A DNA stretch of 49,440 nucleotides from Gemmatimonadota bacterium (GTDB lineage Bacteria; Gemmatimonadota; Gemmatimonadetes; Gemmatimonadales; GWC2-71-9), in contig PNAE01000009.1 of NCBI GenBank assembly GCA_003169895.1, positions 41,664 through 91,103 on the forward strand. Direction: 5' to 3'. Below the pieces are notes generated by a model. That model was not told where the DNA came from and searched no databases. It worked only from the letters and a program-made list of their open reading frames with translations. The position numbers were made by a program, and so were the translations under genes. This document shows positions 13,024-38,058 of the stretch, piece by piece; within the stretch, counting starts at the first letter, position 1; each line of letters opens with the position of its first letter.

Positions 13024-13026
13024 CGC

Positions 13027-13423: not shown

Positions 13424-13441
13424 ATAGTGGGCCAGTTTGAA
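13424..13441. repeat. Left 18-bp inverted repeat flanking the DUF2911 gene
   Basis: The 18-nt sequence atagtgggccagtttgaa here is the exact reverse complement of 14207-14224. The two copies bracket the DUF2911 gene. The sequence resembles the terminal repeats of IS21-like elements as remembered, but no transposase lies between them. Confidence 0.75.
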
Positions 13442-13481
13442 GCCGAGCGGTCGAGGAGCACCACCGGCGACGAACACCGAG

Positions 13482-14162
13482 TTACCGACGCGCCAGCTCG
13501 CCGACGGCGTCGACCCTTGCGCTCCAGCGAAGCCTGTCCCACATGATCACCAACGAACGAGTGGTACCAGGCCGCTCGATCATTGTCTCATATTGAGCAT
13601 AGCCGCGGGACTTCTTCGCATTGATCTCGATCCCCACGGTGTCAGGCCCGAACCGCTGGGTCGCGAAGGCGATGGTGAGTTGTTCGACCGCCGACGCCAA
13701 GGTATCCACTGTCATCTCGACCGAACCCAAATCAGCGGTCTTGTCGTATGAATTCGCGTCGAGGCCGATTCGCCGACTGACGATGAGCGTGGCCGCACCG
13801 GGAGCCACGTTCAACCACAACGCATACGTGCCGGGTGGTACCCGCAGCTTTCCCACCATTAACGGACGTACAGTGGTGAGCGTGGCGACATCTCCCGCGC
13901 CGATGGGCCATGCCACCGACTCCGGAATGATGCCGCCCAGCACCGCGCGACCGAGAAGTCTCGGCCGCACGTACGAGATGGCCACCTGGGCGCTCTCGTC
14001 CCGGCCCACGATGATCGTCGAAACGGTATCGCGGGTCGCGGCGACCTGAGCCGCGGCGGCATATGGCGCCCCGATCCCGAGAGTCACGCCGAGCGCGACC
14101 CGGACCGTCCGGAAGGCTAGCTCGTTCGCATCCAGCCTCAGCTTCGCGAGTTGCTTCGCCAT
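13482..14162 (-). CDS. DUF2911-family exported protein
   Basis: A 226-aa protein with an N-terminal signal-like segment (TVRVALGVTLGIGAPYAAAAQ, about residues 19-39) and then a DUF2911 domain. The domain signs are VAISYVRPRLLGRAVLGGIIP, VAWPIGAGDVATLTT, LMVGKLRVPPGTYALWL and TLIVSRRIG, matching the family pattern of a GR(K)xFGG strand followed by a GTYxL strand. Function is unknown; the family is common in Bacteroidota and Gemmatimonadota as small periplasmic beta proteins. The gene is boxed by an 18-bp inverted repeat and so may have moved as a unit. Confidence 0.8.
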   Translation of the reverse strand: MAKQLAKLRLDANELAFRTVRVALGVTLGIGAPYAAAAQVAATRDTVSTIIVGRDESAQVAISYVRPRLLGRAVLGGIIPESVAWPIGAGDVATLTTVRPLMVGKLRVPPGTYALWLNVAPGAATLIVSRRIGLDANSYDKTADLGSVEMTVDTLASAVEQLTIAFATQRFGPDTVGIEINAKKSRGYAQYETMIERPGTTRSLVIMWDRLRWSARVDAVGELARR

Positions 14163-14206
14163 GCCCGAAAGCTAGACGCGTCACCAGTCCGGCAACCCGG
14201 ACCGAT

Positions 14207-14254
14207 TTCAAACTGGCCCACTATGCCATTGTCACGGCTCAAGTGACCCACTAC
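14207..14254. repeat. Right inverted repeat plus a second related copy
   Basis: Positions 14207-14224 are the exact reverse complement of 13424-13441. A degenerate direct copy follows at 14239-14254: tcaaactggcccacta versus tcaagtgacccactac. Serial terminal repeats of this kind are a feature of IS21-family ends, so this may be the right end of a decayed element. Confidence 0.65.
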
Positions 14255-14336
14255 TCCCTGGCCGGGTCGCGTTGCCCGGAGCTTCCCCGCGGCCTAACTT
14301 TCTGCCAATGCTCTACATCCGCGATTGGCGCCCGGC

Positions 14337-21069: not shown

Positions 21070-21142
21070 AATGATCCATTGGCCGCGAAATCGATAATCG
21101 GTGTGCTGCCGGGTAGCGCCAGGTTGCGCAGATGCCCGCCAC

Positions 21143-21172
21143 TTGCCACGCTGCCGCCGCCGAGACGATACT
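21143..21172 (+). promoter_or_regulatory. Promoter abutting Uma2 gene 1 (leaderless-type)
   Basis: TTGCCA (21143-21148), 18 bp, GATACT (21167-21172), then ATG at once. The same layout with the same spacing is kept at the paralogue (22488-22517). With the -10 touching the start codon, transcription would begin at or just after the first ATG, so either a leaderless mRNA or use of the second ATG two codons later is expected. Confidence 0.5.
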
Positions 21173-21718
21173 ATGTCCATGCCCGCGACCCTCTATTACA
21201 GCGCCGAGATGGTGCGCAATCTCCCCGACGACGGCAACCGGTACGAGACCGTGCACGGGGAATTGCTCGTGACGCCGTCGCCGCGGATGTCGCACCAGGA
21301 GGTCTTGCTCGAGCTGATCCTGATGCTCGGGAATTACCTCAAGAGCGAAGGGGTCAGGGGTCTACTCTGCTCGCCTGCGGACATTTCCTGGGGGCCGGAC
21401 ACACTCGTGCAGCCCGACCTGTTCGTGGTTGACGCTGAGGAGATGAAGAGCAAGGCATGGGCCGACGTTCAGACCCTCCATCTGGTCATCGAGATCCTGA
21501 GTCCATCGAGCACGCGGGCCGATCGCTTTACCAAGCGCCGGCTGTACCAGGAACAGCACGTCGCCACGTACTGGATCGTCGACGTCGATCACCAGCAGGT
21601 GGAGATCTGGACGCCAGAGGCGCGCTTCCCGGTGGTCGAACGGGAACGCCTCACCTGGCGGCATCCGGCGGCGGCGGCGGAATGCGTTGTGGAGCTCGCC
21701 ACGCTGTTCAGCGGGTGA
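21173..21718 (+). CDS. Uma2-family PD-(D/E)xK endonuclease-like protein, copy 1
   Basis: A 181-aa protein of the Uma2/DUF820 family, a restriction-endonuclease-like fold widespread in Cyanobacteria and other phyla and often mobile; its biological role is not settled. Marks are PD (81-82) in LVQPDLFVV, LHLVIEILSPSSTRADRFTKRRLY with the core Glu107, Asp117 and Lys121, and VATYWIVDVDHQQVEIW. The length is usual. ATG 21173 directly follows a -10-like GATACT, and a second in-frame ATG is at 21179. Its 3' end overlaps the opposite LigD-like gene by 11 nt. It is highly similar to the copy at 22518, including about 30 nt upstream. Confidence 0.88.
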   Translation: MSMPATLYYSAEMVRNLPDDGNRYETVHGELLVTPSPRMSHQEVLLELILMLGNYLKSEGVRGLLCSPADISWGPDTLVQPDLFVVDAEEMKSKAWADVQTLHLVIEILSPSSTRADRFTKRRLYQEQHVATYWIVDVDHQQVEIWTPEARFPVVERERLTWRHPAAAAECVVELATLFSG

Positions 21719-22406: not shown

Positions 22407-22487
22407 CCGGCCCCCCACAGGTCTTCTGTCAGAGTGACGAGCGGCACGATGGCTCGCACACCGCGTTGCGGTGATCCACAAACCCAC

Positions 22488-22517
22488 TTGCCACCCTGCC
22501 CCCGCCGAGCAGATACT
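22488..22517 (+). promoter_or_regulatory. Promoter abutting Uma2 gene 2 (leaderless-type)
   Basis: TTGCCA (22488-22493), 18-bp spacer, GATACT (22512-22517), then ATG. It repeats the arrangement at 21143-21172 with only a few differences in the spacer, so the duplication carried its promoter. Upstream it abuts the divergent LigD-like gene (ATG at 22406). Confidence 0.5.
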
Positions 22518-23063
22518 ATGTCCATGCCCGCGACCCTGTACCATAGCGCCGAGCTGGTGCGCCACCTCCCCGACGACGGCAATCGCTACGAAACTGTCCA
22601 CGGCGAGTTACTGGTGACGCCGGCGCCGCGGAAGGCGCACCAAGAGGTTCTCGGCGATCTAAGCTTCCTGCTTCAAGTGTATCTCAAGGGCGCCAGCATC
22701 CGGGGACTGCTCTGTTCACCCGCCGACATTTCGTGGGGACCGGACACGCTGGTCCAGCCGGACCTGTTTGTCGCTGACGCGGAGGAGATGCGTGGGAAGG
22801 ACTGGTCTGACATCCAGACGCTCCATCTCGTGGTCGAGATTCTCAGTCCGGCCAGCGTGCGCGCTGATCGCTTCACCAAGCGCCGCCTGTACCAGGAGCA
22901 GCGGGTGGCAACCTACTGGATTGTCGACATCGACAACCAGCAGGTCGAGACGTGGACGCCCGCCGCGCCCTTTCCCGCGATCGAGCGGGAGCGACTCAAC
23001 TGGCGGCATCCAGCGGCGACCACGGACTGCGTGATCGAGCTGAAGGAGTTGTTCGGCCTGTAG
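22518..23063 (+). CDS. Uma2-family PD-(D/E)xK endonuclease-like protein, copy 2
   Basis: A 181-aa paralogue of the gene at 21173, with the same length and start (MSMPATLY) and roughly three quarters identity by eye. It shares the catalytic layout: VQPDLFVADAEEM, LHLVVEILSPASVRADRFTK, VATYWIVDIDNQQVETW. The most divergent block is residues 37-62, where copy 1 has SPRMSHQEVLLELILMLG and this copy has APRKAHQEVLGDLSFLLQ, so this segment may set specificity. Both copies face right and flank the LigD-like gene. It precedes the restriction-methylation gene by 40 nt and may be read into it. Confidence 0.88.
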   Translation: MSMPATLYHSAELVRHLPDDGNRYETVHGELLVTPAPRKAHQEVLGDLSFLLQVYLKGASIRGLLCSPADISWGPDTLVQPDLFVADAEEMRGKDWSDIQTLHLVVEILSPASVRADRFTKRRLYQEQRVATYWIVDIDNQQVETWTPAAPFPAIERERLNWRHPAATTDCVIELKELFGL

Positions 23064-23102: not shown

Positions 23103-26100
23103 ATGCCCCCACTCTTCTCAGCTGCCGAGGCCGCTCCTCGACTGAAGGCGCTTGCCGCGGCGTGGGATGGCAATACCGCCAACGAAAAAGCCGTCTTCCA
23201 GATGTGGTGGATCGCCTTCTGTGAGGCGCTGGGCGTGCCGGGCCCTGCCACGCCTCCCACCGACCTCGATCGGTTCGAACTTTCGATCCCCACGATTGAG
23301 CGCGACGGCCGCGAGTCCACCAACTACATCGACTATTGGAAGGCCGGCCACGCCGCAGTTGAAGCGAAGGCATCGGAGCCGGGACGCAGCAACGAACAAC
23401 TGCTGATCAAGGCGTTTGGCCAGGTCCGCAACTATGCCGCGTATATCGGCGCCCAGCCGCCGTATCTGATCGTGGTCGATGTGCCGAAGACGCTCATTGT
23501 GTGGGATCGGTGGAGCGGGAACTTCGGCGGTTTCGCGGCCGGAAAGCGCGTGGCACTCGCCACCCTGCACGAGCGGCTCGACGACATCGCGCTGCTGCAG
23601 GACATCCTCACCCGCCCCGACGTGCGCGATCCGCGCGGGAGGGCGCAGGCGGTGACCAAGGAGATCGCAGCGGGACTCGCAACGCTCGCCGCAGCGCTTG
23701 AGCGGCGGGGCTTTGATCAGGAACGGGTCGCCCGCTTCCTGATGCGCTGTGTCTTCTGCTGCTTCGCGGAGGATGTGGCGCTGCTGCCGAAGGATCTCTT
23801 CAAGCGGACGCTCGAAACGGCGCGCAACTCGGGCGCCGCCGATCGCGTCGCCGCCGTACTCACCTCGCTCTGGGAGACGATGGACCAGGGCGGCATGTTC
23901 GGCGCCGAGCTGCTGCATCGCTTCAACGGGCATTTCTTCAAGACGGTGGAAGCGTTGCCGCTCGAGGCAGAAGACGTCGATCTCCTGATTCAGGCGACTT
24001 CGTTCGACTGGTCGCATGTCGAGCCGTCGATCTTCGGCACGCTTCTCGTCCGCGCCCTCGACCCGGTCGAACGCCACCGCCTCGGCGCCGAGTATACGCC
24101 GCGCGAGTACATCGAGCGACTGGTCGAACCGACGGTGGTCGAGCCGATTCGAGAGCGGTGGACGGCGGTGCAGGCGGCGGTGATCCAGCTCGAGGAATCG
24201 GGCAAGAAGAAGGACCGCGACAGCGCCATCAAGCAGTTGCGGGACTTCCATGCGTGGCTGCGGGGTTTGCAGTTCCTCGACCCGGCGTGCGGCAGCGGCA
24301 ACTTTCTCTATGTCACAATGGCGGCGGTCAAGCGCATCGAGCTGGAGGTGATCAGCGCCACCGAGCGCGTGGGTGGGAAGGAGCAGAAGGAAGCGATCCT
24401 CGACGAGGTGCATCCGCGCCAGTTTCATGGCATCGAGATCAAGCCGTGGGCGCGCGAGATCGCGGAACTCACTCTGTGGATTGGGTATCACCAGTTCTGG
24501 CGCGAGGCACATGGTGGGCGGACGCCGCCCGATCCGATCCTGGAGGACACTGGAACGATCGAGTGTCGGGATGCGGTGCTGGCGTATGACAGCATTGTGC
24601 ACAGGCCGGAGAAGGATCGGCCCGATCCGACGCCGCGGATCATCTCTCCGGTTACGGGGGAGTTGATTCCCGATCCGACTGCCAAGCTCAAGTACATGGA
24701 GTACGTGAATCCGCGTCCGGCGGAGTGGCCGAAGGCGGATTTCATTGTTGGGAATCCGCCGTACATAGGCACTTCCCGGCAACGGGACGCTCTCGGTGAC
24801 GGATACGTCGATTCTGTACGGGCAGCCTATCCCGAGATTCCCGACACCGCTGATTTCGTGATGTACTGGTGGGCGCGGGCTGCAGCTGCGGTTGGTTCCG
24901 GCATCACACTGCGCGCCGGGTTGATCACAACGAACTCCATAACCCAAGCGCAGAACCGTGCTGTAGTTCGCCACGCGATGGAAACGGGCGTCCGAGTCAT
25001 CTGGGCAATTGCGAACCACCCGTGGCGCGACGACGTCAACGACGCAGACGTACGCGTAGCGATGACTGTCACCGGCCGCGATGTGACGATAGCAGCGCGG
25101 CTGATTGACGTGAACGAACTCGGCCAAGTTGAAGCAATCAAGTCTTCACACATCATTGAAGAGGACCTGACGACGAGTGGGGTCGCTCGCGCCGCGAACA
25201 CTCCGCTTGACGCAAACGAGGGTATGGCGCATCGTGGTTTCCAATTGATTGGCTCGGGATTCCTGCTTACGGGCATCGAGGCCGAGTCGGTGATCGCTGC
25301 GGACAGCAGATCCGGGGAAGTGATCCGTCCATACCTGCACGGACGTGATTTCGCCGGACGTCCGCGTGGCCTGCGGGTAATTGACTTTGCGTTGAGCACC
25401 ATCGAGGAGGCGCGCACGTACCCTGTTGCGTTCCAGCGTGTAATAGATCGCGTCAAGCCTGAGCGGGACGCTAACGCCAGGGAGGCGTACCGACGGAATT
25501 GGTGGCGTTTCGGTGAACCACGTCCTGAACTTCGCGCTGCAGTTCTCCACCTTCGTCGCTTCATCGTGACAGCGGAGACCATGCGGCACCGATTGTTCGG
25601 GTTCTTGGATGTCCGGAACGCCCCAGATAACAAACTGGTATGCATCGCGACGGACAACGCGACGCATCTAGGCTATTTAAGCTCGGCTCATCACGGTGCA
25701 TGGGCTGTCGCGGCTGGTAGCCGCCTCGGTGTGGGCGACGATCCCGTCTATGCGAAGCGTCTGGCGTTCGATCCATTCCCCTTCCCCGACCCCTCGCCCG
25801 ACCTTCGCATTCGGATCGGCGTCCTCGCCGAGCGGCTCGATGCGCATCGCAAGGACGCGATCGCGCGCGACGAGCGCGTCACGATGACGGGCATGTACAA
25901 TGTGGTCGAGAAGCTGCGGTCGGGCGAAGCGCTTACGTCCAAGGAGCGGGTAGTACATGAGATCGCCGCGTGCGGCGTGTTGCGCGACCTGCACGATGAA
26001 CTGGACGGGCTGGTCGCCGAGGCCTACGGCTGGCCGTGGCCGATGCAGAAGGAAGAGATCCTCGAGCGGCTGGTGAAGCTCCACGACGAGCGAGTGGAGG

Positions 26101-26435
26101 AAGAGAAGCGCGGCCAGATCCGCTGGCTCCGGCCCGACTACCAGATCCCGCGCTTTGCGCCGGCGGGCACGCCTGCAACACTCGGTATTCCCGATGCCCC
26201 AGCGGCAGCGGCCGAGCCGGTGGCATTGCGCCCGTGGCCCGCGACGGCGGTGGAGCAGCTGGCGGCGATCGGTGCGCTGGTGGGTCAGGAGCCGCGTTTG
26301 GCCGATGACATTGGTGCGGCGTTCGCGGGCGCCAAGCGCGAGCTGGTCGCTAGGCACCTGGAGACGCTGGCGCTGATGGGGGAAATCGCGATGGATGGCG
26401 AGGGACGGTATTCGGTGGTGAGGAAGGCGGCGTAG
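23103..26435 (+). CDS. MmeI-like (type IIL/IIG) fused restriction endonuclease-methyltransferase
   Basis: An 1110-aa single-chain restriction-modification enzyme. The N-terminal nuclease motif is D77-x9-E87-A-K89 (IDYWKAGHAAVEAKAS), the same spacing as the D-x9-ExK of MmeI, followed by a QVRNYA helix and PPYLIVVDV. A helical linker leads to the gamma-class N6-adenine methyltransferase: motif I LDPACGSGNFLYV at 392-404, then FHGIEIKPWAREIAELTLWIG, and motif IV NPPY at 551-554. The C-terminal 500 residues hold the target-recognition region (HLGYLSSAHHGAWAVAAGSRLGVG) and a helical tail. It would methylate one strand and cut at a fixed distance. It is longer than MmeI (919 aa). The last 80 residues (WPATAVEQLAAIGALVG) look like a winged-helix add-on. 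The ATG at 23103 has no strong ribosome site. Confidence 0.85.
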   Translation: MPPLFSAAEAAPRLKALAAAWDGNTANEKAVFQMWWIAFCEALGVPGPATPPTDLDRFELSIPTIERDGRESTNYIDYWKAGHAAVEAKASEPGRSNEQLLIKAFGQVRNYAAYIGAQPPYLIVVDVPKTLIVWDRWSGNFGGFAAGKRVALATLHERLDDIALLQDILTRPDVRDPRGRAQAVTKEIAAGLATLAAALERRGFDQERVARFLMRCVFCCFAEDVALLPKDLFKRTLETARNSGAADRVAAVLTSLWETMDQGGMFGAELLHRFNGHFFKTVEALPLEAEDVDLLIQATSFDWSHVEPSIFGTLLVRALDPVERHRLGAEYTPREYIERLVEPTVVEPIRERWTAVQAAVIQLEESGKKKDRDSAIKQLRDFHAWLRGLQFLDPACGSGNFLYVTMAAVKRIELEVISATERVGGKEQKEAILDEVHPRQFHGIEIKPWAREIAELTLWIGYHQFWREAHGGRTPPDPILEDTGTIECRDAVLAYDSIVHRPEKDRPDPTPRIISPVTGELIPDPTAKLKYMEYVNPRPAEWPKADFIVGNPPYIGTSRQRDALGDGYVDSVRAAYPEIPDTADFVMYWWARAAAAVGSGITLRAGLITTNSITQAQNRAVVRHAMETGVRVIWAIANHPWRDDVNDADVRVAMTVTGRDVTIAARLIDVNELGQVEAIKSSHIIEEDLTTSGVARAANTPLDANEGMAHRGFQLIGSGFLLTGIEAESVIAADSRSGEVIRPYLHGRDFAGRPRGLRVIDFALSTIEEARTYPVAFQRVIDRVKPERDANAREAYRRNWWRFGEPRPELRAAVLHLRRFIVTAETMRHRLFGFLDVRNAPDNKLVCIATDNATHLGYLSSAHHGAWAVAAGSRLGVGDDPVYAKRLAFDPFPFPDPSPDLRIRIGVLAERLDAHRKDAIARDERVTMTGMYNVVEKLRSGEALTSKERVVHEIAACGVLRDLHDELDGLVAEAYGWPWPMQKEEILERLVKLHDERVEEEKRGQIRWLRPDYQIPRFAPAGTPATLGIPDAPAAAAEPVALRPWPATAVEQLAAIGALVGQEPRLADDIGAAFAGAKRELVARHLETLALMGEIAMDGEGRYSVVRKAA

Positions 26436-26517
26436 GGCGGTACGCTGATCGGTGGGGTTGGTAATCATACCGCGGTGCGAGATAAAACCTAGTCACACAG
26501 TCCACGAGGGTCACAGA

Positions 26518-27429
26518 ATGTCAGTTCCGCCTTTCCAAGAGATCACCCTTCCCCTTCTGTCGATCGCGCGGGATCGAGCGGTTCATTCTCTAGCCGATGT
26601 TCGCGAGCAGCTCGCCAATGGATTCCAGCTGACTGAAATTGAGCGCAATGAACTTCTGCCGAGCGGGCGCCAGACGCGATTCGCAAATCGCGTGGCCTGG
26701 GCCAAGGTCTACTTAGAGCAGGCGGCCCTTCTTTCGTCGCCGAAACGAGGACAACTGGTGATTACGCCACGAGGCCTCAGTGTTCTCGACAATCCGCCTG
26801 ACCGCATCACGATTCGATTCCTCGAACAATTTCCGGAGTTCGCCACGTTTCGCGCGAGGCGACAGTCGCCAGTAACGGCGGTCCCGCCAGACACTGAGGA
26901 GGCAGAAACGCCCGAAGAGTTGCTGGAGGCAGGTTACCAGCGCAGTCGGGCTGGATTGGCGGCCGACCTGCTGCAGCGAATCAAAGGCATGCCACCGAGT
27001 TTTTTCGAGCGATTGGTTGTAGACCTACTTCTAAAGATGGGATACGGAGGAACACGGGCTGATGCCGGTGACGCAATCGGCAAGGCGGGAGACGAGGGCA
27101 TCGATGGCGTGATCGCTGAGGACAGGCTCGGCCTTGACCTTGTATACCTTCAGGCCAAGCGCTGGGAGGGCACAGTCGGCCGGCCCGAGATTCAGAAGTT
27201 TGTTGGAGCACTTCATGGCAAGCGCGCCCGCAAAGGAGTGTTCCTCACGACCGGCGACTTTTCTGACGAAGCGCTGGCCTACGTGCAGAATATCGACCCG
27301 AGGGTAGTGCTGATCGACGGGGAGCAACTCGCGGACTTCATGATTGACTTCGATGTAGGTGTTGCCGTCGAGCGCACCTATGCACTGAAGCGGGTCGATT
27401 CAGATTTCTTCGAGCCGGGAACTGTCTGA
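26518..27429 (+). CDS. mrr: Mrr-family type IV restriction endonuclease
   Basis: A 303-aa protein, almost exactly the length of E. coli Mrr (304). The N-terminal winged-helix DNA-binding domain is residues 5-95 (ITLPLLSIARDRAVHSLADVRE, RVAWAKVYLEQAALL, GQLVITPRGL). The C-terminal nuclease core has SFFERLVVDLLLKMGYGG, GDEGIDGVIAEDRLGLD with D196, and the QxK of YLQAKRW (Q212, K214). Mrr enzymes cut DNA carrying foreign methylation. GAGGG lies 7 nt before the ATG at 26518, 82 nt after the methyltransferase-nuclease gene. Its GC looks lower than the flanks. Co-occurrence with an adenine methylase means its target must differ from the mark placed by the neighbour. Confidence 0.92.
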   Translation: MSVPPFQEITLPLLSIARDRAVHSLADVREQLANGFQLTEIERNELLPSGRQTRFANRVAWAKVYLEQAALLSSPKRGQLVITPRGLSVLDNPPDRITIRFLEQFPEFATFRARRQSPVTAVPPDTEEAETPEELLEAGYQRSRAGLAADLLQRIKGMPPSFFERLVVDLLLKMGYGGTRADAGDAIGKAGDEGIDGVIAEDRLGLDLVYLQAKRWEGTVGRPEIQKFVGALHGKRARKGVFLTTGDFSDEALAYVQNIDPRVVLIDGEQLADFMIDFDVGVAVERTYALKRVDSDFFEPGTV

Positions 27430-27459
27430 CACACGCTTGCTGCGGGCGGCCGCGGATAT

Positions 27460-28368
27460 ATGTCTCTACTGCAGGATCCCACCTTGGCGCTCAGGCAGAT
27501 TGCCTGGTACATGGACTCCCGGGAGAGTGAGTTTTTTCCGGGAGCCTTCCTCTTGGCGGCTGGAAACCTCGCACGCCAAGTCTTGGAGCAGGTGGCGTTC
27601 ATACTGGCCTTCTACGGCGGTCTTCCTCAACAGTCCTATCTGCGCCCGAACGGTCAGCCGCGGACGCTCGATGCCATCCTTCGTGCGCTTGCGCAACGCG
27701 ATTCAAGCACGGGTAAGACATATCTCGCCCTCGCCAGACTGAAAGGGCCCCGCATCCGCAAGCTCGCGCGCAGCACACGGTCCCTGCATAGATGGCGGCG
27801 TTTGCTCAATGAGCCATCCCATTTTGCTAATCCAGCCGCTGGTCGGAAGCTTCTGGAACGTGACCTCCGCGCATTTGTTGAACACTTTGTGACGATCCTG
27901 GAGCCCCTCGACGCGTACTTGATCACAGCTGCTGTGAATGAGATCAAGTCTGGCGGCTTCATTAAGGCGATCCTAACCGTGGATCCATCCAATAAACCTG
28001 GTGTGCTGTACACGATTCGCGCATCGCCACAGATGATCCACTTCAAAGGCGGTAAGTTCTCGCTGCGCGCGCCGGTCCCCATAGTCGTCGTCAACAAGAA
28101 CCAAGAACTTCCTTATCGCTGGCGGCGCAAGGTCGTTGTCGTCCAAGACAGCCGAGGTATGGTGCTTCAGTCGCAGGTAGTTACTTCCTCTGGGAACCCG
28201 ATCAATATGAGCAGCTTTGCCCACGTGCTGTCCGGTTTTGCCTCTGACCCGATTGACGCACCGGCGCTCATGGCTCGACTGAGGTGCTTCGGCTTTCATC
28301 TCTCGATGCGCGATGGAGTGGTAACTGGTCGTCACGATGGCAAGGTGCGCCGCCTAACATCCGCATGA
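27460..28368 (+). CDS. Unrecognised 302-aa protein downstream of Mrr
   Basis: No family was recognised. The N-terminal half is helical (FFPGAFLLAAGNLARQVLEQVAFILAFYGGLP at about 25-56, then TYLALARLKGPRIRKLARST and RDLRAFVEHFVTILEPLDAYL), reminiscent in pattern of HEPN-like four-helix proteins but without a clear RxxxxH motif. The C-terminal half is beta-rich with runs such as APVPIVVVNKNQ and KVVVVQDSRG. It starts at ATG 27460, 30 nt after mrr, with no obvious ribosome site, and is probably in the same transcript. Codon use is less GC-rich than the core genes. The stop codon lies inside an attC-like sequence (28352-28375), so the gene may have arrived as a cassette. Confidence 0.7.
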   Translation: MSLLQDPTLALRQIAWYMDSRESEFFPGAFLLAAGNLARQVLEQVAFILAFYGGLPQQSYLRPNGQPRTLDAILRALAQRDSSTGKTYLALARLKGPRIRKLARSTRSLHRWRRLLNEPSHFANPAAGRKLLERDLRAFVEHFVTILEPLDAYLITAAVNEIKSGGFIKAILTVDPSNKPGVLYTIRASPQMIHFKGGKFSLRAPVPIVVVNKNQELPYRWRRKVVVVQDSRGMVLQSQVVTSSGNPINMSSFAHVLSGFASDPIDAPALMARLRCFGFHLSMRDGVVTGRHDGKVRRLTSA

Positions 28369-28375
28369 AGCTGTC
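28352..28375 (+). repeat. attC-like element, copy A
   Basis: GCCTAAC (28352-28358, an RYYYAAC-type core) is followed after 3 nt by CGCATGAAGCTGTC. The same 24-nt sequence with 4 differences occurs on the minus strand at 45450-45473. It overlaps the end of the 302-aa gene in the orientation expected for a cassette's own recombination site. No clean complementary GTTRRRY core was found within the next 150 nt, so a complete attC is not shown. Confidence 0.4.
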
Positions 28376-28601
28376 CGGGGTATAGAGATAAGTAGGCCAA
28401 CTTGAGCGCAGACCAATGTTTTCGCCGCTCCGAGCTAGTTCATAGCTGCACTATCGCTCGCCGCACGGTCGCCTCAACCGTCTCACCGCGCAGTGTGAAT
28501 TGCGGGTATGCTTGAAAGTTGCCGGCTGCGCGGCCGCCGCGGAAGCGCAGAGTCGCCGCGGGCTATATACTGACGCTTGGGTCGGCGACCTCGGAGGAGC
28601 C

Positions 28602-29897
28602 ATGAACACAGCGCACAGGTTGCGGCAGAGCCGCCGGTTGGCCGGTACCGCCCTTATGGCCGCTGTGATCTGCGTCGCGACTGGGTGTCAATCGCACGAC
28701 TCGACGACGCCGCCAGCTAGTCCATTTGTGATTTCCCCAGCAGCCGCATTCGCCGGTTCGACCGTGACGATTCACGGATCAGACTTTCGCGCGCTTGGCA
28801 CCGGTGCCGCGGCCCTGACGATAGGCGACACGGATGTGACGCTCTCGCGGTTGGACGACACAACGATGTCGGCCCTGGTGCCCGCGACTGCTGGCGGCGT
28901 GCTCACCCCCGTGCTCAAGCTGAATCAACGCCAGGTGCAACTGGCGCCGATTACCGTGTTTGGCTTTGCCGATTTGCACACGTACGACACCTTCCCCATC
29001 GAACCCGTTGTATGGCCGCGAACCGGTCACGCCGTGATCATGGGCTTCGCATTCTTCACGGATCTCGAATTCATTGACCTCGATACCAAGACCATCACAA
29101 ACTACCCCGCGATCAATTGCTGCCTGAACAGTCCGGGCGCAACCTATCAGGACAGTGTATTCGTGTTCCGTTCGCGTGACGATTCGCTCGAGGCCTGGCG
29201 CGTGCTTCCGGTACCCACCCGAATCGCCTCAGCTGCCGGATTCGGCGGTGGCTCTGGTTGGGAGGCACTGCAGCTGGGCCCCGATCGATGGCTCAGGGCG
29301 TCCAAGTACCAAATATCGACGCCGACGGGGCTGACGTCGATCGTGCAACCGCAGGGCAGCTACATGTCGCCGCGCCACGACCGGGCGATGTTTGGCGCAC
29401 TCGCCGCGTCAGGAGGACCCAGCCTCGGTACTCCCTTGGCCACCGTTCCAGTCTTCGCCGTTCCTTCCGGCACGGTGGCATACCTGAGCCCGCTCGCGGC
29501 CGTCATCGGAGTGGACTTCAGCCCCGACGGTGAACTGCTCGCGATGGTTGGCGGGAGTGTCTACATCGGTGCCATCAAGCGGATTGTGCTGCTCCGCGCG
29601 GCGACCGGCGAGGTTCTCGGCGACACCACCATCGATCGTAATGTCTACGCTGTCGCTATCGATCCTGTGCGCCCGCTGCTTTACGTCAGCACGATGACGG
29701 CAATGCGGCCGACGGTATTGGTGCTGGACCGCAGTACGTTCCGCGTGCTCGGCGAGATGCAGGCCCCTGCTTTTGCGTTCGCACAGGCCGACCTGGGCTC
29801 ATTCATCCAAGGGGGCGTAATCGCACTCAACTCCCAGAACGGGCTGTACCTCTTCTGGAAGCAAACCGCGTGGCGATTCACGCTGCCCGAACCGTAA
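28602..29897 (+). CDS. Lipoprotein with N-terminal IPT/TIG domain and propeller-like body
   Basis: A 431-aa exported protein. Signal peptide with lipobox VATGCQ; a TIG/IPT-type Ig domain at about 40-125 (FVISPAAAFAGSTVTIHGSDF, MSALVPATAGG); then a body with blade-like repeats (TVAYLSPLAAVIGVDFSPDGELLAMV, RNVYAVAIDPVRPLLYVSTM, VLVLDRSTFRVLGEM) resembling a YVTN or WD-like propeller. Probably surface-anchored; ligand unknown. ATG 28602 has GGAGGAG 3-9 nt upstream, a strong site. TATACT at 28566-28571 may be its -10. The frame extends upstream but without protein-like content. Confidence 0.8.
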   Translation: MNTAHRLRQSRRLAGTALMAAVICVATGCQSHDSTTPPASPFVISPAAAFAGSTVTIHGSDFRALGTGAAALTIGDTDVTLSRLDDTTMSALVPATAGGVLTPVLKLNQRQVQLAPITVFGFADLHTYDTFPIEPVVWPRTGHAVIMGFAFFTDLEFIDLDTKTITNYPAINCCLNSPGATYQDSVFVFRSRDDSLEAWRVLPVPTRIASAAGFGGGSGWEALQLGPDRWLRASKYQISTPTGLTSIVQPQGSYMSPRHDRAMFGALAASGGPSLGTPLATVPVFAVPSGTVAYLSPLAAVIGVDFSPDGELLAMVGGSVYIGAIKRIVLLRAATGEVLGDTTIDRNVYAVAIDPVRPLLYVSTMTAMRPTVLVLDRSTFRVLGEMQAPAFAFAQADLGSFIQGGVIALNSQNGLYLFWKQTAWRFTLPEP

Positions 29898-30342
29898 TTA
29901 TTAGAAGCGCGACCGCACGGAACAGCAGTCTTCCTTGCCGCCAGCATCACCGACCGCTTGCGCTTCCGGAGAGCAGTTCCAATGCCTCCCAATGCCGATG
30001 CGGCACCGTGCGCCCCCCAGGGGAGCCCAGTTGTGCACCCCTGAGCCTCCCACGACCGGGAAAAATACCGGCGAAAAGACCGGCGAAAAGTCCGGTGAAT
30101 TTGCCAGTGCAAATGCCAGTGCAATTGCCAGCGAAATTGCCAGACCGTCGCCCAGGGCCCGCCCCGCGGCGCCGCACGGCTGGCGATCAGCTGGCGCGCT
30201 GTGTTCCGCGAGCCCGGAGCAGTTGCGCGATGGTGTCCCAATGCCGCGGATGCGGCACACTGAGTACCCGCCGGATCCTGCTACGTGATGCGTTGGTGAG
30301 CCCGACCGCCGCGCGAGTCCGAATTAGTTGGGAGGTAACAAC
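29898..30342. other. Intergenic region with minisatellite and flanking near-direct repeats
   Basis: A 445-bp gap. It holds a 12-nt-period array (30067-30144) and, on either side, a related pair of sequences: tcccaatgccg-atgcggcac at 29987-30006 and tcccaatgccg-cgg-atgcggcac at 30236-30258, each preceded by cagtt. Several open frames cross it on both strands, but all owe their openness to the 12-nt array and none has a credible start. GGGAGGT at the right edge belongs to the next gene. Confidence 0.5.
30067..30144. repeat. 12-nt minisatellite, about six and a half units
   Basis: Units are accggcgaaaag (twice), tccggtgaattt, gccagtgcaaat, gccagtgcaatt, gccagcgaaatt, then a partial gccagacc. 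The unit drifts stepwise along the array. As 12 is divisible by 3, every frame shows a 4-residue repeat (TGEK/SGEF/ASAN in one, PAKx/PVQx in another), which explains spurious open frames. Confidence 0.85.
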
Positions 30343-30690
30343 ATGAGGAAGCGTCTGATTGCGTTGGCACTTGCTGGACTGATGACCACCGCAGAAGCGC
30401 AGCCGGTTCCGGCGCAACGAGCCATCGGGCCACGGGCTGGATTGACGCAAACGACGAGCACTCGAAAGGCGGCGTGGGAGCGGTCAGTCCCAACGGATTC
30501 ACTCGCGCCGAACGAGTGGAAAAGGGGTGTTGCCATTGGTGCCGGGATCGGCGCGGCGCTCGGTTTGTTTTTTTACTCCTTGGAAAGCAGGCTCAGTGAC
30601 AATGGTACCCACCCCGAGGTAATCCTTGGGACAGCTTTGGTACTTGGCCTGATAGGCGGGATGATCGGTTCGAGCATTCATAAGAAATAG
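30343..30690 (+). CDS. Small exported glycine-zipper membrane protein
   Basis: A 115-aa protein with a signal peptide (RLIALALAGLMTTAEAQ), a polar middle and two hydrophobic Gly-rich helices (VAIGAGIGAALGLFFYSLE at about 62-80 and LGTALVLGLIGGMIGSSIH at 95-113). This is the pattern of small glycine-zipper proteins common in this type of genome; the role is unknown. The start is well set: GGGAGGT lies 6 nt before ATG 30343. Its 3' end overlaps that of the opposite gene at 30678, which looks like a distant paralogue. Confidence 0.75.
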   Translation: MRKRLIALALAGLMTTAEAQPVPAQRAIGPRAGLTQTTSTRKAAWERSVPTDSLAPNEWKRGVAIGAGIGAALGLFFYSLESRLSDNGTHPEVILGTALVLGLIGGMIGSSIHKK

Positions 30691-31124
30691 GTGACATTCG
30701 TCGCCGATGAACGAACGGTCCCTCCCGAGGAGTGACCTTCCCCCCGAAAAGTCCGGCAGTGGAATAGTAGAGTAGAATCGGCTTTGAGCTGCATCCAAAC
30801 GGGACCAACGTCAGTTGTATAGTTGCCTGGGTTGTCCACGTGATTATCCGCGAGGAGACGGAACGAAACGCCACCGACTAGCGCACCGATTAGCACGCCG
30901 AGCAACGGGGCGTCCGAATTCTTCACGTCCCGCCCGGCGGCCGAGTTGATCAGCGGGAAATTCGAATTGAGAGACAAGCGAGCCGGCTCTCGCGTCGAGC
31001 GACCGACATCAACCGGGACCGGGGCAATGTTTGTCAGCCCCACGCGAAGTCCTGGCGCGGCCTGTGCGTTGAGACCATGGGCCGGCGCCATTGAGATGAG
31101 CAGCAGAATCGTCGATCTAGTCAT
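30678..31124 (-). CDS. Small exported protein, distant paralogue of the opposite gene
   Basis: A 148-aa frame. Signal peptide (STILLLISMAPAHGLNAQ) then GLRVGLTNIAPV, comparable to GPRAGLTQTTST in the neighbour at 30343, then one Gly-rich helix (LLGVLIGALVGGVSFRLLA). The second helix of the neighbour is not found; the C-terminal 50 residues (VWMQLKADSTLLFHCRTFRGEG onward) look random. The gene may have lost its true 3' end and now reads into the overlap with the opposite gene. No clear ribosome site. It is convergent and overlaps by 13 nt. Confidence 0.55.
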   Translation of the reverse strand: MTRSTILLLISMAPAHGLNAQAAPGLRVGLTNIAPVPVDVGRSTREPARLSLNSNFPLINSAAGRDVKNSDAPLLGVLIGALVGGVSFRLLADNHVDNPGNYTTDVGPVWMQLKADSTLLFHCRTFRGEGHSSGGTVRSSATNVTYFL

Positions 31125-31157
31125 TGCGATCCTCCCACGGGGCCCTTGTGCAACTCG

Positions 31158-31520
31158 TCATGTCGCCAATCCATCAAACGCGTGTATCCAGGAGTACAAG
31201 AGGATGAGCGGCACAAAGAACACGAACCAGCCGATGGTCTCGGGGCGCCCGACACGAGCACCCGAAATCTCAGTTGTCGCGTAACGGACCCGGCAGGAAT
31301 CACAGCTGGTGTGGGTGAGCCAGGGAATCCCGCTCACTGAATCGCGCTCGAATCGTACAGCGTGCAGGCGCACGGTTGTGTCGCGGACCCTGAACTCCAG
31401 CACCGTTCGCTCCGCTAGGGGCTTTGGTTGCGGCAAGGTGACGGGCTGCCAGTTTGGACCGCAAGCAGCAAGCGTGAGAACGACGAGCAGCGATGCCATC
31501 CGAACAATTCGAGCGAGCAT
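31158..31520 (-). CDS. Small lipoprotein with C-terminal membrane helix
   Basis: A 120-aa protein with lipobox VLTLAACGP (Cys about 20), a short beta-like domain (TVLEFRVRDTTVRLHAVRF, CDSCRVRYATTEI with a CxxC pair), and a hydrophobic C-terminal helix (WFVFFVPLILLYSWIHAF). The Met at 31520 is chosen; another at 31499 gives a shorter signal peptide and is equally possible. Function unknown. It reads leftward upstream of the 31124 gene with a 33-nt gap, so both may be one unit. Confidence 0.65.
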   Translation of the reverse strand: MLARIVRMASLLVVLTLAACGPNWQPVTLPQPKPLAERTVLEFRVRDTTVRLHAVRFERDSVSGIPWLTHTSCDSCRVRYATTEISGARVGRPETIGWFVFFVPLILLYSWIHAFDGLAT

Positions 31521-31574
31521 GGGCCCTCGACACTGCGGTCTCACGACTCCGCCAACTCCGCGCTGCCGCGGTGG

Positions 31575-31610
31575 CCCCGGCGGCCCCGGCGGCCCCGGCG
31601 GCCCCGGCGG
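31575..31610. repeat. 9-bp GC tandem repeat (ccccggcgg x4)
   Basis: Four exact 9-nt units. On the plus strand they encode AAPAAP-type or GGPGGP-type peptides depending on frame. Slippage-prone sequence; no function is evident. Confidence 0.85.
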
Positions 31611-31809
31611 CCGCGCACCGTACCGAAGGTACTCTTGCCCCGCGGGACCTGCCGCCGCCGGGCAGCGCCGCGCGGGCAGAGAGTCCGGTGAGGTGGCAGA
31701 TCGTGCGGCTCAGGCCGCCGCAGATCCCGCCCGATCCGCCGCCGGGCAGCGACCCGCAGGCAGATCGTCGGGGTACGCTCCTCCCGTGCTGCCGGTGATG
31801 TCAGCGCAC

Positions 31810-31944
31810 CTAGTGTGATGTCCCGGTAATTGCTTTCGCAAATCGGGTGAGCTTCGCGAGGATGGATTCGGCGGTGGCTGTCCAGACAAACGGCGTGGAC
31901 GTCCGGTTGTACCTGGTGACGAACGTGTCGGATTTCGGATCCGT
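31810..31944 (-). pseudogene. C-terminal remnant of an IS630-family transposase
   Basis: Reading the minus strand gives SDTFVTRYNRTSTPFVWTA then TAESILAKLTRFAKAI and a TAG at 31810. The 'RYN-x-PFVWTATAExIL' string is the usual end of the DDE domain of IS630 transposases. Nothing of the rest of the enzyme (catalytic D, D, E blocks) is found upstream, where the frame is lost near 31944. This is a fossil of an insertion element beside a foreign-looking gene. Confidence 0.7.
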
Positions 31945-32059
31945 GGGTGGCAATGGCCGCTCAGGTGCAGATCAATTGTCGGCAGCGTTTGACTCGCGAA
32001 TCACGAATGGCTAACTTCGGCTTTGAATCGCGCGGAAGCCGCCATGAGATCCGGTGACA

Positions 32060-32935
32060 ATGACCTCCAAACGCCTGGCACTGGCCGCTTTCCTCCTCTT
32101 CTCGCTGGCTGTCCCGCGCCTGCGCGCACAGGGTCCACCATTTCAGATCGACGACCCGGTGCCGGTGGATCTGCATCATTACGAGTTTTACGTTTTTGCC
32201 TCCGCGAGCGGAACCCCGGTCGAAAGGGACGTGACTGGACCCGCCTTCGAGTTCAATTGGGGCGCGATTCCCCGGGTTCAGATTCACGCGATCCTGCCTT
32301 GGGGCGTGGTCGCTCCCTCGAACAACGCGGCCTATTTTCCAAGCGGAAGCGGCCCCACCGAATTCGGCCTGACGGACGCCGAACTCGGCGCCAAAATCGC
32401 GTTTTACAAAGAGAGCAAGTACATCCCGCAGATCGGCTCGTTCACCATGCTCGAACTGCCCACAGGCAACTCTGACCAAGGCCTGGGCGTAGGCAAAGCT
32501 CGGTTCAAGGTTCCCGTCTGGCTGCAGAAGAATATCGGCAAATGGCTGCTTGACGCCGGCGGCGGGTATACCATCGTTCCGCAAACCGGCTATCGCAATT
32601 TTTCGTACGGCGGATTTCTTGTGAAATACACCGTCAGCGACCGGCTGGAATTGGGCGGTGAAGTGTTTTCCCATGGCGCCGAAGGCGCCGCCACGCCGCA
32701 GATACGCGCCTCGACGATGATCGATTTCGGCGGCTATTATCATTTTCACAATCCCAACCAACAACTTCTATTCTGTTACGGTCGCAATGTGGCAGGCCTC
32801 ACCGAAAACTACGCGTACGTCGGCTTGTATTGGACGTGGGGCAAAGACAATAGCCCAGCAAGACCCCAAGTCGAGACAAAGAACCAAGGATCGTTGCATA
32901 AACAGGAGGGGCTCGATCAAAGGAAGGAGCGGTAA
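32060..32935 (+). CDS. Outer-membrane beta-barrel protein, MetA-pathway-like (Phenol_MetA_deg) family
   Basis: A 291-aa protein with signal peptide (LALAAFLLFSLAVPRLRAQ) then GPPFQIDDPVPVDLHHYEFYVFAS, WGAIPRVQIHAILPWG, FGLTDAELGAKIAFYKES and late strands LELGGEVFSHGAEG, FGGYYHFHNPNQQLLF, YAYVGLYWTWG. Alternating aromatic strands fit a small outer-membrane barrel. The sequence resembles, from memory, acidobacterial members of the MetA-pathway phenol degradation family. ATG 32060 is used; a GTG two codons earlier is also possible. Codon use is more AT-rich at wobble than its neighbours, an IS630 fossil lies before it, and a gene is broken at its right edge, so recent transfer is likely. Confidence 0.75.
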   Translation: MTSKRLALAAFLLFSLAVPRLRAQGPPFQIDDPVPVDLHHYEFYVFASASGTPVERDVTGPAFEFNWGAIPRVQIHAILPWGVVAPSNNAAYFPSGSGPTEFGLTDAELGAKIAFYKESKYIPQIGSFTMLELPTGNSDQGLGVGKARFKVPVWLQKNIGKWLLDAGGGYTIVPQTGYRNFSYGGFLVKYTVSDRLELGGEVFSHGAEGAATPQIRASTMIDFGGYYHFHNPNQQLLFCYGRNVAGLTENYAYVGLYWTWGKDNSPARPQVETKNQGSLHKQEGLDQRKER

Positions 32936-33214
32936 CCGAGACGCGCCGGAGTCAACGAGATACTTGGCGACCGCCAGCCACCGTCGCAACACGGCAGTCG
33001 ACGCATGGACGAGGCGAAAGTCCTGTAGCTCGAACCCCTGCCGTGATAAGGAATTGGGCATCGCCAGCAGCGACACACCGTTGGCGGAATCGCCGCGAAT
33101 GCCAAAGTCCAGGAGCGGCCACTTGACCGAAGCTGGCGGAGCCCAGGAGGTTTGGGCCGCCAGAGCGTGCCAACACATGAGGATCGTTACGGCAGCGAGG
33201 AGGAACAGTCGCAT
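32768..33214 (-). pseudogene. Exported protein truncated at the right edge of the inserted segment
   Basis: From ATG 33214 the frame encodes a signal peptide (RLFLLAAVTILMCWHALAAQ) and a protein-like stretch (WAPPASVKWPLLDFGIRGD, GVSLLAMPNSLSRQGFELQD, RRWLAVAKYLVDSGA). Beyond about 32940 the frame runs antisense through the barrel gene (LPLIEPLLFMQRSL onward) and is no longer credible. The true 3' part seems to have been cut off when the segment to its left was inserted. A weak GAGGAGG-like site lies in the coding region; no family was recognised. Confidence 0.55.
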
Positions 33215-33258
33215 AGCCCGAAACTCCCAGAAAGTCACGGCTGACGGCTGGCGCTTCC

Positions 33259-33546
33259 GTGGCGATGCGTGGAGGCGGCTGCCGTGATGTCGAGATTCCG
33301 CCCCGCACAACCCCGATGGCCGCCGTCGCTGCCAGGGCCCGGATGCTCGTGCTCGTCGGCGACGCCACGCATGCGGAACTCGCAGATAACTTCATCCGGA
33401 CGACGCCGAAGATCCTGAAATTCCTGGCGAAGCGCCGAGGGCCGATGATCGCGAAGGTCTACCGCCCGAGCCCCGCCGGACCGGCCGCCGGGCCCGCGGT
33501 CGCCGGGCGGATCGAGCTCTGGTATCCAAAGCAGCGCAGGCCCTGA
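33259..33546 (+). pseudogene. C-terminal remnant of a PIN-like (VapC45-type) toxin
   Basis: The frame reads RDVEIPPRTTPMAAVAARAR, MLVLVGDATHAELADNFIRT and ILKFLAKRRGPMIAKVYRP. This follows the C-terminal half of VapC45/DUF5615-like PIN proteins ('rD..I..R..e..am..a.arafvL', then 'R..Pri..f......PfIa.v.R'). The N-terminal half with the first acidic PIN residues is missing and no antitoxin gene is present. The protein as read would start at a GTG and is unlikely to be active. Confidence 0.5.
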
Positions 33547-33589
33547 CCGCCGCCATCGAGTCACGAAGGCGTGTTCGGCGCATGGAGGG

Positions 33590-33610
33590 CTCTGGTTCGA
33601 GTCCCCCTCA
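33590..33610. repeat. 21-nt direct repeat, downstream copy
   Basis: ctctggttcgagtccccctc at 33590-33609 (plus a final a) recurs with one change at 36532-36552, so the 951-aa Ig-like gene is bracketed. On the gene's own strand the upstream copy lies in its leader. Here, read on the minus strand, the copy is followed by CCTCC then an ATG with RR-encoding codons, like the start of the upstream gene. Confidence 0.8.
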
Positions 33611-33621
33611 TAAGTGACGTT

Positions 33622-33666
33622 GGGGGTGGCGGGAGCTTATCGGTTACTCGCGAGCTCCCGCCCCCC
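33622..33666 (-). terminator. Strong GC hairpin after the Ig-like lipoprotein gene
   Basis: The arms ggggg-t-ggcgggagct and agctcccgcc-cccc pair around a 15-nt loop, beginning 3 nt after the stop of the gene at 33670. There is no U-run after it on the minus strand (caacgtcac), so it may act with Rho or protect the 3' end. Confidence 0.7.
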
Positions 33667-33669
33667 GAG

Positions 33670-36525: not shown

Positions 36526-36531
36526 GGCAGC

Positions 36532-36552
36532 CTCTGGATCGAGTCCCCCTCA
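36532..36552. repeat. 21-nt direct repeat, upstream copy
   Basis: Matches 33590-33610 at 20 of 21 positions. On the minus strand it ends in AGAGG 5 nt before the ATG of the lipoprotein gene, so it overlaps the ribosome-binding region. The repeat could be a conserved leader element rather than a mobile-DNA end. Confidence 0.75.
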
Positions 36553-36685
36553 AAGGCGACGGATCCCTCCCCGATGGCTCATCCAACTTGACCGCCGTGG
36601 CCTGCCATACACGACCAACCAAGCCTAACCCAGGAAAGCGTCAGGGCGGCGTCACGCGGCGGTGCCCGCCCGCTGCCGGCAATGG

Positions 36686-37207
36686 TCAGGCAGACTTGCT
36701 CACCGCGTACTCCAGGCGGACAATCCCGCTTTCATGAACTCGATGACTGGTGAGTTGCAACTTCTTTCGGGCGGCCGGTGCGGGCAGCAGCGGGATCCCG
36801 CCGCCCAACAGGACCGGCTCAACCACGACCTCCACGGTGTCGACCAGCCCGGACTGCAGCAGCCGGCGGAACAGCTCGCCGCCGCCGAAGAGCCACACGT
36901 CCTTTGTCGATTCGCTGCGCAGACTGGCCACGGCCCGCTCGGCATCCTCGCCGATCACCGTGACCTCTGGATGGTCCTCTTGTCGCAAGGTCGTCGACAG
37001 AACGACGGTCTTGATGCCGGGCATGGTTGTGCGGCCGGCGCGCACCATCGTTTCAAAGGTCCGCCGCCCGACCAAGATGGTATCGAACTGCGCCACCAGC
37101 GCACCAAAGTCCATACCGGGATCTGTGATGATCCAGTCAGCCTCGCCGTTCGGCCCGGCGATGTATCCGTCAAGGCTCATTGCAACCGAGTACCGAATAC
37201 GGTTCAT
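36686..37207 (-). CDS. Dihydrofolate reductase-like (RibD C-terminal fold) protein
   Basis: A 173-aa member of the DHFR/RibD_C superfamily of the stand-alone YwjB/YyaP kind. Marks: RYSVAMSLDGYIAGPNGEADW at 5-25, DTILVGRRTFETM at 42-54, DVWLFGGGELFRRLL at about 103-117, and a closing strand LEYAVSK. These proteins bind NADPH and their substrate is mostly unknown; true folate reduction is not assured. GAGG lies 6 nt before ATG 37207. Confidence 0.85.
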   Translation of the reverse strand: MNRIRYSVAMSLDGYIAGPNGEADWIITDPGMDFGALVAQFDTILVGRRTFETMVRAGRTTMPGIKTVVLSTTLRQEDHPEVTVIGEDAERAVASLRSESTKDVWLFGGGELFRRLLQSGLVDTVEVVVEPVLLGGGIPLLPAPAARKKLQLTSHRVHESGIVRLEYAVSKSA

Positions 37208-37240
37208 CTGCGCCTCTTTCAGTTGTCGAATCCGGCCGCC

Positions 37241-37376
37241 CTAGCTAGGCCCCTGGCTCGCGGGAAATGCGGATAGCCACCGTCCCACCCGCTTGGCATA
37301 TCTGTCATAGGAATCGCCGAAGCGCCGACGGAGCGTCGGCTCCTCATATCCGAGCGTGAAGAGATTCGCCGCGACG
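37241..37376 (-). pseudogene. C-terminal remnant of an ICMT/PEMT-type methyltransferase
   Basis: In a different frame from the VOC gene, the minus strand reads VAANLFTLGYEEPTLRRRFG then DSYDRYAKRVGRWLS and a TAG at 37241. 'YEEPxLrrrFGxxYxxYxxxVxRW(L)' is the end of isoprenylcysteine-carboxyl-methyltransferase-like membrane proteins. The membrane helices that should precede it are absent; instead the VOC gene runs into it. This is the scar of a deletion. Confidence 0.65.
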
Positions 37377-37850: not shown

Positions 37851-38058
37851 GTCACGTCTCCATCGTGAAGAGCCACCCGACACCGCAGCAAAGCGATTCG
37901 AAGGAGTTAGCTCGGTCGACTTCCGCAGCAAAAGGCTGAAATAGCCGTTCTCTGTGAGACGATACGGATGCCTGGAGCAATCACACCACCATTCCGTCGG
38001 AATGTCGAGCGACTCCTCCCGCCTGAGGATCCAGAAGTGTGTTTCAAAGAAGAAAGAA

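What the first reader, a model, noticed from the sequence alone, without database searches (positions are those of the whole stretch)
23103..28375. MmeI-like enzyme, Mrr and an unknown 302-aa protein as a candidate three-gene defence unit
A self-contained adenine methylase-nuclease (D77-x9-E87-A-K89 with NPPY) is followed in the same direction by Mrr and, 30 nt later, by a protein of no known family. Mrr enzymes attack modified DNA, so a stable pairing with a methylase needs either distinct target marks or control. The third gene, helical then beta-rich, could supply that control or be a separate effector. The MmeI-like protein also has a C-terminal helical extension beyond the usual length.
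Basis: partly seen in the sequence, partly recalled or inferred. Interest (0 to 1): 0.55.

Follow-up and report, generated by a model that had tools for sequence, protein, structure and literature searches.

The report
Old restriction enzyme, newer Mrr–toxin-like pair
The three neighbouring genes are real, but they look like two separate things: a long-resident DNA-cutting-and-marking enzyme, and an apparently later-acquired pair made of a nuclease expected to cut marked DNA and a protein of no known sequence family whose front half may fold like a common bacterial RNA-cutting toxin domain.

Summary
The genes are as described: MmeI-like type IIL enzyme (23103-26435), Mrr (26518-27429) and, 30 nt on, a 302-aa protein (27460-28368) with no significant hit in the family libraries. 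A three-gene unit is not supported. Same-genus genome G141 keeps the MmeI-like gene (78% identical, colinear on its left) without Mrr or the 302-aa gene. Only the window's own loci hold MmeI and Mrr together, and none of 80 Mrr loci carries a 302-aa relative in the flanks held. Mrr and the 302-aa gene share low G+C (0.585, 0.576; below all 136 sampled ORFs) while MmeI is typical in GC3 and codons, so these two probably arrived together. The MmeI C-terminal extension is normal for its subfamily. The 302-aa protein is a sequence orphan in everything searched. Its first ~160 residues most resemble HEPN toxins, at Z values that do not exclude a generic helix bundle. Best reading: a modification-dependent nuclease plus a HEPN-like effector beside an older RM enzyme; a probable new member of a known kind.

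The parts
22434..23063 (+). Uma2-family putative endonuclease, directly upstream of the MmeI-like gene; a Uma2-like ORF stands there in the same-genus genome G141 too
   Evidence: Pfam Uma2 1.2e-24; colinear blastn match; ORF next to MmeI in L053
23103..26435 (+). MmeI-like type IIL/IIG restriction enzyme-methyltransferase, 1110 aa; older resident gene, not part of the newer pair
   Evidence: D77/E87/K89 and NPPY551; GC3 and codon use typical of the genome; orthologue in G141
26518..27429 (+). Mrr-type modification-dependent endonuclease, 303 aa (wH N-domain plus PD-QxK nuclease)
   Evidence: Pfam Mrr_N and Mrr_cat, PADLOC type IV, D196/Q212/K214 conserved in 8 of 8 aligned; low G+C
27460..28368 (+). 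302-aa orphan protein, candidate HEPN-like effector
   Evidence: no significant family match or homologue found; fold comparison
27472..27939 (+). HEPN-like helical domain, residues 5-160 of the 302-aa protein
   Evidence: AlphaFold2 of residues 1-168 alone, pLDDT 64.8, pTM 0.55; top VIA-align rows are HEPN toxins
27799..27822 (+). R114-LLNEPS-H121, candidate R-x6-H motif at the predicted helix-3/helix-4 junction
   Evidence: sequence; position relative to predicted helices 96-117 and 125-163. Weak: six R-x4-6-H spacings exist in the protein
27952..28365 (+). beta-rich C-terminal part of unknown fold, residues 165-302
   Evidence: no Pfam match alone; strands predicted at pLDDT under 50

Best explanation
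Two defence layers stand side by side. (1) An old MmeI-like RM enzyme, held in at least one other genome of the genus, marks its asymmetric site with adenine methylation and cuts unmarked sites. (2) A later-acquired two-gene cassette: Mrr, which would cut incoming DNA carrying modifications in contexts it recognises, and a protein whose N-terminal ~160 residues adopt a HEPN-like fold, with a beta-rich C-terminal sensor or partner-binding part. The likely mode of the second protein is that proposed for other RM-linked HEPN proteins: an RNase-like effector, held in check normally and released to stop growth when the DNA nuclease is overwhelmed or blocked. Shown here: gene identities by family match, gene order, absence of three-gene linkage in what was searched, shared foreign composition of Mrr and the 302-aa gene. 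Supported by prediction only: the HEPN-like fold. Inferred: co-transcription, RNase activity, growth arrest, control by Mrr, and that Mrr does not recognise the MmeI-like mark.
For: Domains and motifs. MmeI without Mrr or the 302-aa gene in G141, with left flank colinear to the MmeI stop. G+C of Mrr 0.585 and of the 302-aa gene 0.576, lower than 136 of 136 sampled ORFs; codon likelihood lower than in all but 8 and 7 of 136; MmeI mid-range in GC3 and codons. Whole-model VIA-align: rows 1-10 are all HEPN-type entries, Z 9.3-7.7, next rows 7.4 and 7.1. N-domain model: rows 1-4 HEPN, Z 10.7-9.9 over 116-123 residues; 15 of the 50 rows shown are HEPN entries, 16 with 1wty. Plain Foldseek on the whole model had a HEPN toxin, 7bxo_F, at rank 2 (E 0.34, prob 0.82). 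HEPN proteins are linked to RM genes in at least 16 clades (PMC3710099, passages).
Against: Z about 10 is below the tool's own caution level of about 13 for helical bundles, and a designed bundle ties at 9.7. Foldseek itself gives no match at E 0.001 or better, and on the N-domain model only one labelled HEPN entry, 8xeh_D at rank 23, is in the 50 rows shown. By my grouping of titles the HEPN rows come from few proteins: about four in the top ten, seven or eight. No HEPN sequence profile matches. The R-x6-H motif is weak: six such spacings occur and the residue after R is L, not the usual polar N/D/H. No homologue exists to show conservation or linkage. In 80 Mrr loci a strict motif pair found an N6-methylase in only 4, and none has this partner, so this Mrr type seems usually to work alone.
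Confidence: 0.5

Rival explanations
1. The 302-aa protein is unrelated to Mrr: an orphan of mobile DNA that lies downstream of Mrr by chance in a variable region; its helical part is a generic bundle without RNase function.
For: No homologues in any search; window 26436-38063 has no blastn counterpart on the two G141 contig stretches compared; a 122-nt stretch at 31809-31930 recurs at 98% elsewhere in the genome; Mrr relatives show no shared partner by eye.
Against: 30-nt gap on the same strand, same atypical composition as Mrr, and concentration of HEPN entries at the top of the structural comparison.
Confidence: 0.3
2. The 302-aa protein is a regulator or specificity partner of Mrr, its HEPN-like part serving for binding rather than catalysis.
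For: Adjacent to Mrr; HEPN domains fused to nucleotidyltransferases often lack the R/H pair and are described as potential substrate-binding domains (PMC3710099, passages); the motif here is imperfect.
Against: No relative of it in the flanks held of 80 of 80 Mrr loci, so Mrr does not seem to need it in general.
Confidence: 0.13
3. A true three-gene unit in which MmeI-like methylation, Mrr and the third protein work together.
For: Same strand, short gaps of 82 and 30 nt.
Against: MmeI-like without the others in G141; no MmeI-Mrr pairing in any other locus held; different composition.
Confidence: 0.05

Closest known systems
MmeI family, type IIL RM enzymes (MmeI, PDB 5hr4)
   Same: Domain order, D...ExK nuclease, NPPY methylase, TRD; catalytic D70/E80/K82 of MmeI named in PMC4833311 (passages)
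   Different: 1110 against 919 aa; the longer C-terminus is shared by the subfamily
Mrr / EcoKMrr type IV restriction enzymes
   Same: wH N-domain plus PD-QxK Mrr_cat domain (description of EcoKMrr in PMC12707154, passages)
   Different: Next to an MmeI-like enzyme and an orphan gene; target marks unknown
HEPN superfamily toxins, HEPN/MNT type (SO_3166 PDB 5yep/7bxo, 7ae8, 8xdj) and RM-linked HEPN proteins (PrrC/RloC, AbiJ, DUF4145)
   Same: Predicted helical arrangement of residues 5-160; an R-x6-H at the end of helix 3; neighbour of a restriction gene as in at least 16 HEPN clades (PMC3710099, passages)
   Different: No sequence profile match; no nucleotidyltransferase among the 13 neighbouring ORFs scanned with Pfam; extra beta-rich C-terminal part; L instead of a polar residue after R

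Membership tests
MmeI / type IIL | MmeI_N, hel, Mtase and TRD domains in one chain | tested here: met
   All four Pfam models above cut-off
MmeI / type IIL | D-x9-ExK nuclease motif and NPPY methylase motif | tested here: met
   D77, E87, K89, NPPY551; D77, E87, K89 and N551-P552-P553 invariant in 10 of 10 aligned sequences
MmeI / type IIL | Adenine methylation of one strand and cutting at a distance | not testable with these tools
   Needs methylome or enzyme assay
Mrr type IV | Mrr_N (wH) plus Mrr_cat with D...QxK | tested here: met
   Pfam; D196, Q212, K214
Mrr type IV | Cuts only modified DNA | not testable with these tools
   Needs in vivo or in vitro assay
HEPN superfamily | Match to a HEPN sequence profile | tested here: not met
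   No Pfam match at E 10 for the whole protein or either half; so it is not filed as a HEPN member by sequence
HEPN superfamily | HEPN helical fold | tested here: inconclusive
   Top VIA-align rows HEPN, Z up to 10.7, below the caution level for helical bundles; single-sequence models
HEPN superfamily | R-x4-6-H at end of helix 3, polar residue after R | tested here: inconclusive
   R114-x6-H121 at the right place, but residue 115 is L and similar spacings occur elsewhere in the protein
HEPN superfamily | RNase activity / toxicity | not testable with these tools
   Needs expression assay
Three-gene MmeI-Mrr-302aa defence system | The genes recur together in other genomes | tested here: not met
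   Only the window's own loci hold MmeI and Mrr together; 0 of 80 Mrr loci hold a 302-aa relative; Mrr absent from G141, which keeps MmeI

The most novel reading that the evidence does not exclude
Mrr plus the 302-aa protein form a two-layer unit of a new sequence family: a modification-dependent DNase with a dedicated HEPN-fold RNase whose beta-rich tail senses Mrr-DNA engagement or phage, an Mrr counterpart to PrrC, the HEPN nuclease linked to the PrrI restriction system.
Probability: 0.25. Interest if true: 0.55.

Novelty: new member of a known kind. Interest (0 to 1): 0.3.

Why it matters
If the pair is real, it extends the idea that RM systems carry a built-in RNA-targeting back-up to stand-alone Mrr enzymes, and it suggests that RM-linked HEPN-like effectors can lie beyond the sequence profiles tried here. 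As it stands it is one orphan gene with a predicted fold. The clearer lesson is methodological: closely spaced same-strand defence genes can be a stack of independent acquisitions, as composition and a sister genome indicate here.

Tried and rejected
Three-gene unit: rejected. Unusual C-terminal extension of the MmeI-like protein: rejected, normal for the subfamily.

Homologues of the 302-aa protein. Phylum sample: only the window's own genome of 395 matched. Own order: only its own of 230 (overlaps). Plasmids and phages: none at E 0.01; plasmids at E 10 gave three short matches at E 1 to 8. Viral and genome contigs: no relatives; these scans reach close relatives only. Genomes of 39 of the 80 Mrr loci: 0 of 39. 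Class of G412 (Pseudoduganella): 5 of 369 at E 0.002-0.01, about what chance gives; I read two of the five, L145 and L146, whose matches lie across longer ORFs of other proteins; L147-L149 were not read. Phylum of G405 (an Acidobacteria MAG): 1 of 199, L150, which looks like a shadow frame of a repeat protein. Phyla of G398 and G425: 0 of 198 and 0 of 146. phmmer over 7021 ORFs of 50 aa or more from the loci then held, own loci L001, L002 and L018 left out: best E 1.3; blastp best E 1.6. PDB by sequence: one chance-level match, 2o2a, E 1.1 and 0.48. BFVD fold search: nothing at E 0.001.

A consistent downstream partner of Mrr relatives: by an ORF rule, a same-strand ORF follows in 44 of 79 loci read (one of the 80 dropped for lack of an Mrr ORF; 74 with 400 nt or more of room); I saw no shared protein by eye and ran no clustering. 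No Rfam match in the window. Promoter and terminator scans did not exceed shuffles, so operon structure is undecided. I saw no paper describing an MmeI-Mrr-302aa locus; the literature searches were seen as listings with abstract starts, and passages only were read of five papers.
Full report
What is there. Three ORFs on the + strand follow one another: an MmeI-like enzyme (23103-26435), Mrr (26518-27429; the ORF list's GTG start at 26452 is not needed) and a 302-aa ORF (27460-28368). The first carries all four MmeI Pfam domains, matches PADLOC's type IIG model PDLC03627 almost end to end, and keeps D77/E87/K89 and NPPY. MmeI's own catalytic residues are D70, E80 and K82 (PMC4833311, passages), with the same spacing. 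Mrr has the wH and Mrr_cat domains with a D...QxK site. The third has no significant match in Pfam, PHROGs, PADLOC or NCBIfam; the only line is a PHROG of unknown function at E 0.31.

The three genes are not one unit. Phylum samples of 200 genomes gave 20 with an MmeI-like match (E 1e-50) and 15 with an Mrr match (E 1e-20), own genome included. tblastn of the three proteins at E 1e-3 over every locus held at that point found MmeI and Mrr together only in the window's own loci. Limits: of the 15 other Mrr places, L012-L015 had at most 1.5 kb of flank on a side and were not extended, and some others end near a contig end. Of the MmeI matches, ten were extended (L053-L062), the contigs of L029 and L030 end near the gene, and the weaker or fragmentary L031-L041 had default flanks. 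The same-genus genome G141 carries the MmeI-like gene at 78% identity and has no match to Mrr or to the 302-aa protein. Its DNA is colinear with the window, with indels, from base 1 to 26433, the end of the MmeI gene, and then the two diverge. The window's right side resumes similarity at 38064 on another G141 contig. Mrr is without a match in all nine other genomes of the genus, three of which are under 90% complete in the table's 86, 86 and 86% and one 80%. A Uma2-like gene stays next to MmeI in G141.

Mrr and the 302-aa gene look co-acquired. Overall G+C is 0.585 and 0.576, lower than in all 136 sampled ORFs of 200 aa or more from twelve 20-kb stretches of the same genome. The sample was chosen greedily by length and filtered on GC1>GC2. 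GC3 is lower in only 8 and 9 of the 136. The MmeI-like gene is nearer the middle: 52 of 136 have lower GC3, 71 lower codon likelihood, 18 lower G+C. This shows common foreignness, not common function.

Mrr relatives elsewhere. None carries a relative of the 302-aa protein by phmmer and none an MmeI relative by tblastn. By a strict motif pair, which may undercount, 4 of 80 hold an N6-methylase; all four are N6_Mtase proteins by Pfam, three with HsdM_N. This Mrr type seems mostly to stand alone.

The 302-aa protein. Nothing similar was found in 394 other genomes of the phylum sample, in plasmids, phages, viral contigs, or further taxon samples. The three borderline matches that were read look like chance; three more were not read. 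Folded whole without an alignment it is poor (pLDDT 45.3). Its first 168 residues alone reach pLDDT 64.8 and pTM 0.55 with main helices 7-20, 28-52, 70-84, 96-117 and 125-163. VIA-align on the whole model puts HEPN-type entries in ranks 1-10 (Z 9.3-7.7; 1jog, 8xdj, 7ae8, 7ae9, 8xeh, 7ae6, 6m6u, 6m6w, 8yuf, 7bxo), with 3mfn (unknown function) at 7.4 and a designed protein at 7.1 next. On the N-domain model ranks 1-4 are HEPN (Z 10.7, 10.6, 10.2, 9.9), a designed bundle is fifth at 9.7, and 15 of 50 rows are HEPN entries, or 16 with 1wty. I take 1jog, 1wwp, 1o3u, 2hsb and 2q00 as HEPN from PMC3710099 (passages). That 1wty is HEPN-like, and that the chains listed for the toxin-antitoxin complexes are the HEPN partners, is recalled. 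Against this, the tool warns that helical bundles can score up to about 13 by arrangement alone. Plain Foldseek gives no significant match: it ranked 7bxo_F second on the whole model at E 0.34, but on the N-domain model only 8xeh_D, at rank 23, is a labelled HEPN entry among the 50 shown. I treat the fold as probable, about 0.65.

Motif. HEPN RNases carry R-x4-6-H at the end of helix 3, usually with a polar residue after R (PMC3710099, passages); mutating R or H of SO_3166 (RNIAVH) abolishes toxicity (PMC4621449, passages). Here R114-LLNEPS-H121 sits at the predicted helix-3/helix-4 junction. But the protein has 30 arginines and six R-x4-6-H spacings, and residue 115 is L, so the motif adds little by itself.

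How it would work. [quoted passage not shown] MmeI-type enzymes protect the host by single-strand modification (title of a reference seen). Coexistence needs only that Mrr ignores the MmeI-like mark, which the single-strand mark could allow (inference). HEPN genes in at least 16 clades lie with RM genes and are proposed to act as an RNase back-up released when restriction fails (PMC3710099, passages). By analogy the 302-aa protein is most likely such an effector for Mrr, its beta-rich tail being the sensing or binding part. Every functional step is inferred.

Verdict. The remaining interest is an orphan, possibly HEPN-like protein that appears co-acquired with Mrr.

Noticed in passing
window 21101-21718 and 22434-23063: Two Uma2-family genes 75% identical in protein flank a short LigD-type 3'-phosphoesterase gene on the other strand; a single stretch of G141 (27812-28465) matches both copies, suggesting a duplication or insertion.
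   Followed up: partly
window 24873-25700: Inside the otherwise 81-85% identical MmeI-like gene, blastn to G141 has a gap here that overlaps the target-recognition domain (residues 698-896), so the two genomes' enzymes may recognise different sites; G141 also holds a separate second piece of an MmeI-like gene (matching window 24064-24328 at 89%).
   Followed up: no
window 31809-31930: A 122-nt stretch recurs at 98% identity elsewhere in the genome (C8:508655-508776). Read on the - strand it ends a frame (DTFVTRYNR...TSH*) that looks, from memory, like the end of a transposase.
   Followed up: partly
window 6097-14298: About 8 kb absent from the colinear G141 region; it holds two adjacent large ORFs (905 and 895 aa) that look like ABC-type permeases by eye.
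   Followed up: no
L045, L048, L051: Within the phylum some Mrr relatives lie near proteins that look by eye like RM subunits and helicases, without MmeI.
   Followed up: no
window 38059-41049 and 46418-48763: Two Ser/Thr kinase-like proteins, the first a kinase-TPR protein by Pfam, the second by similarity only; DNA matching the first one's kinase part recurs many times across the genome and genus.
   Followed up: no
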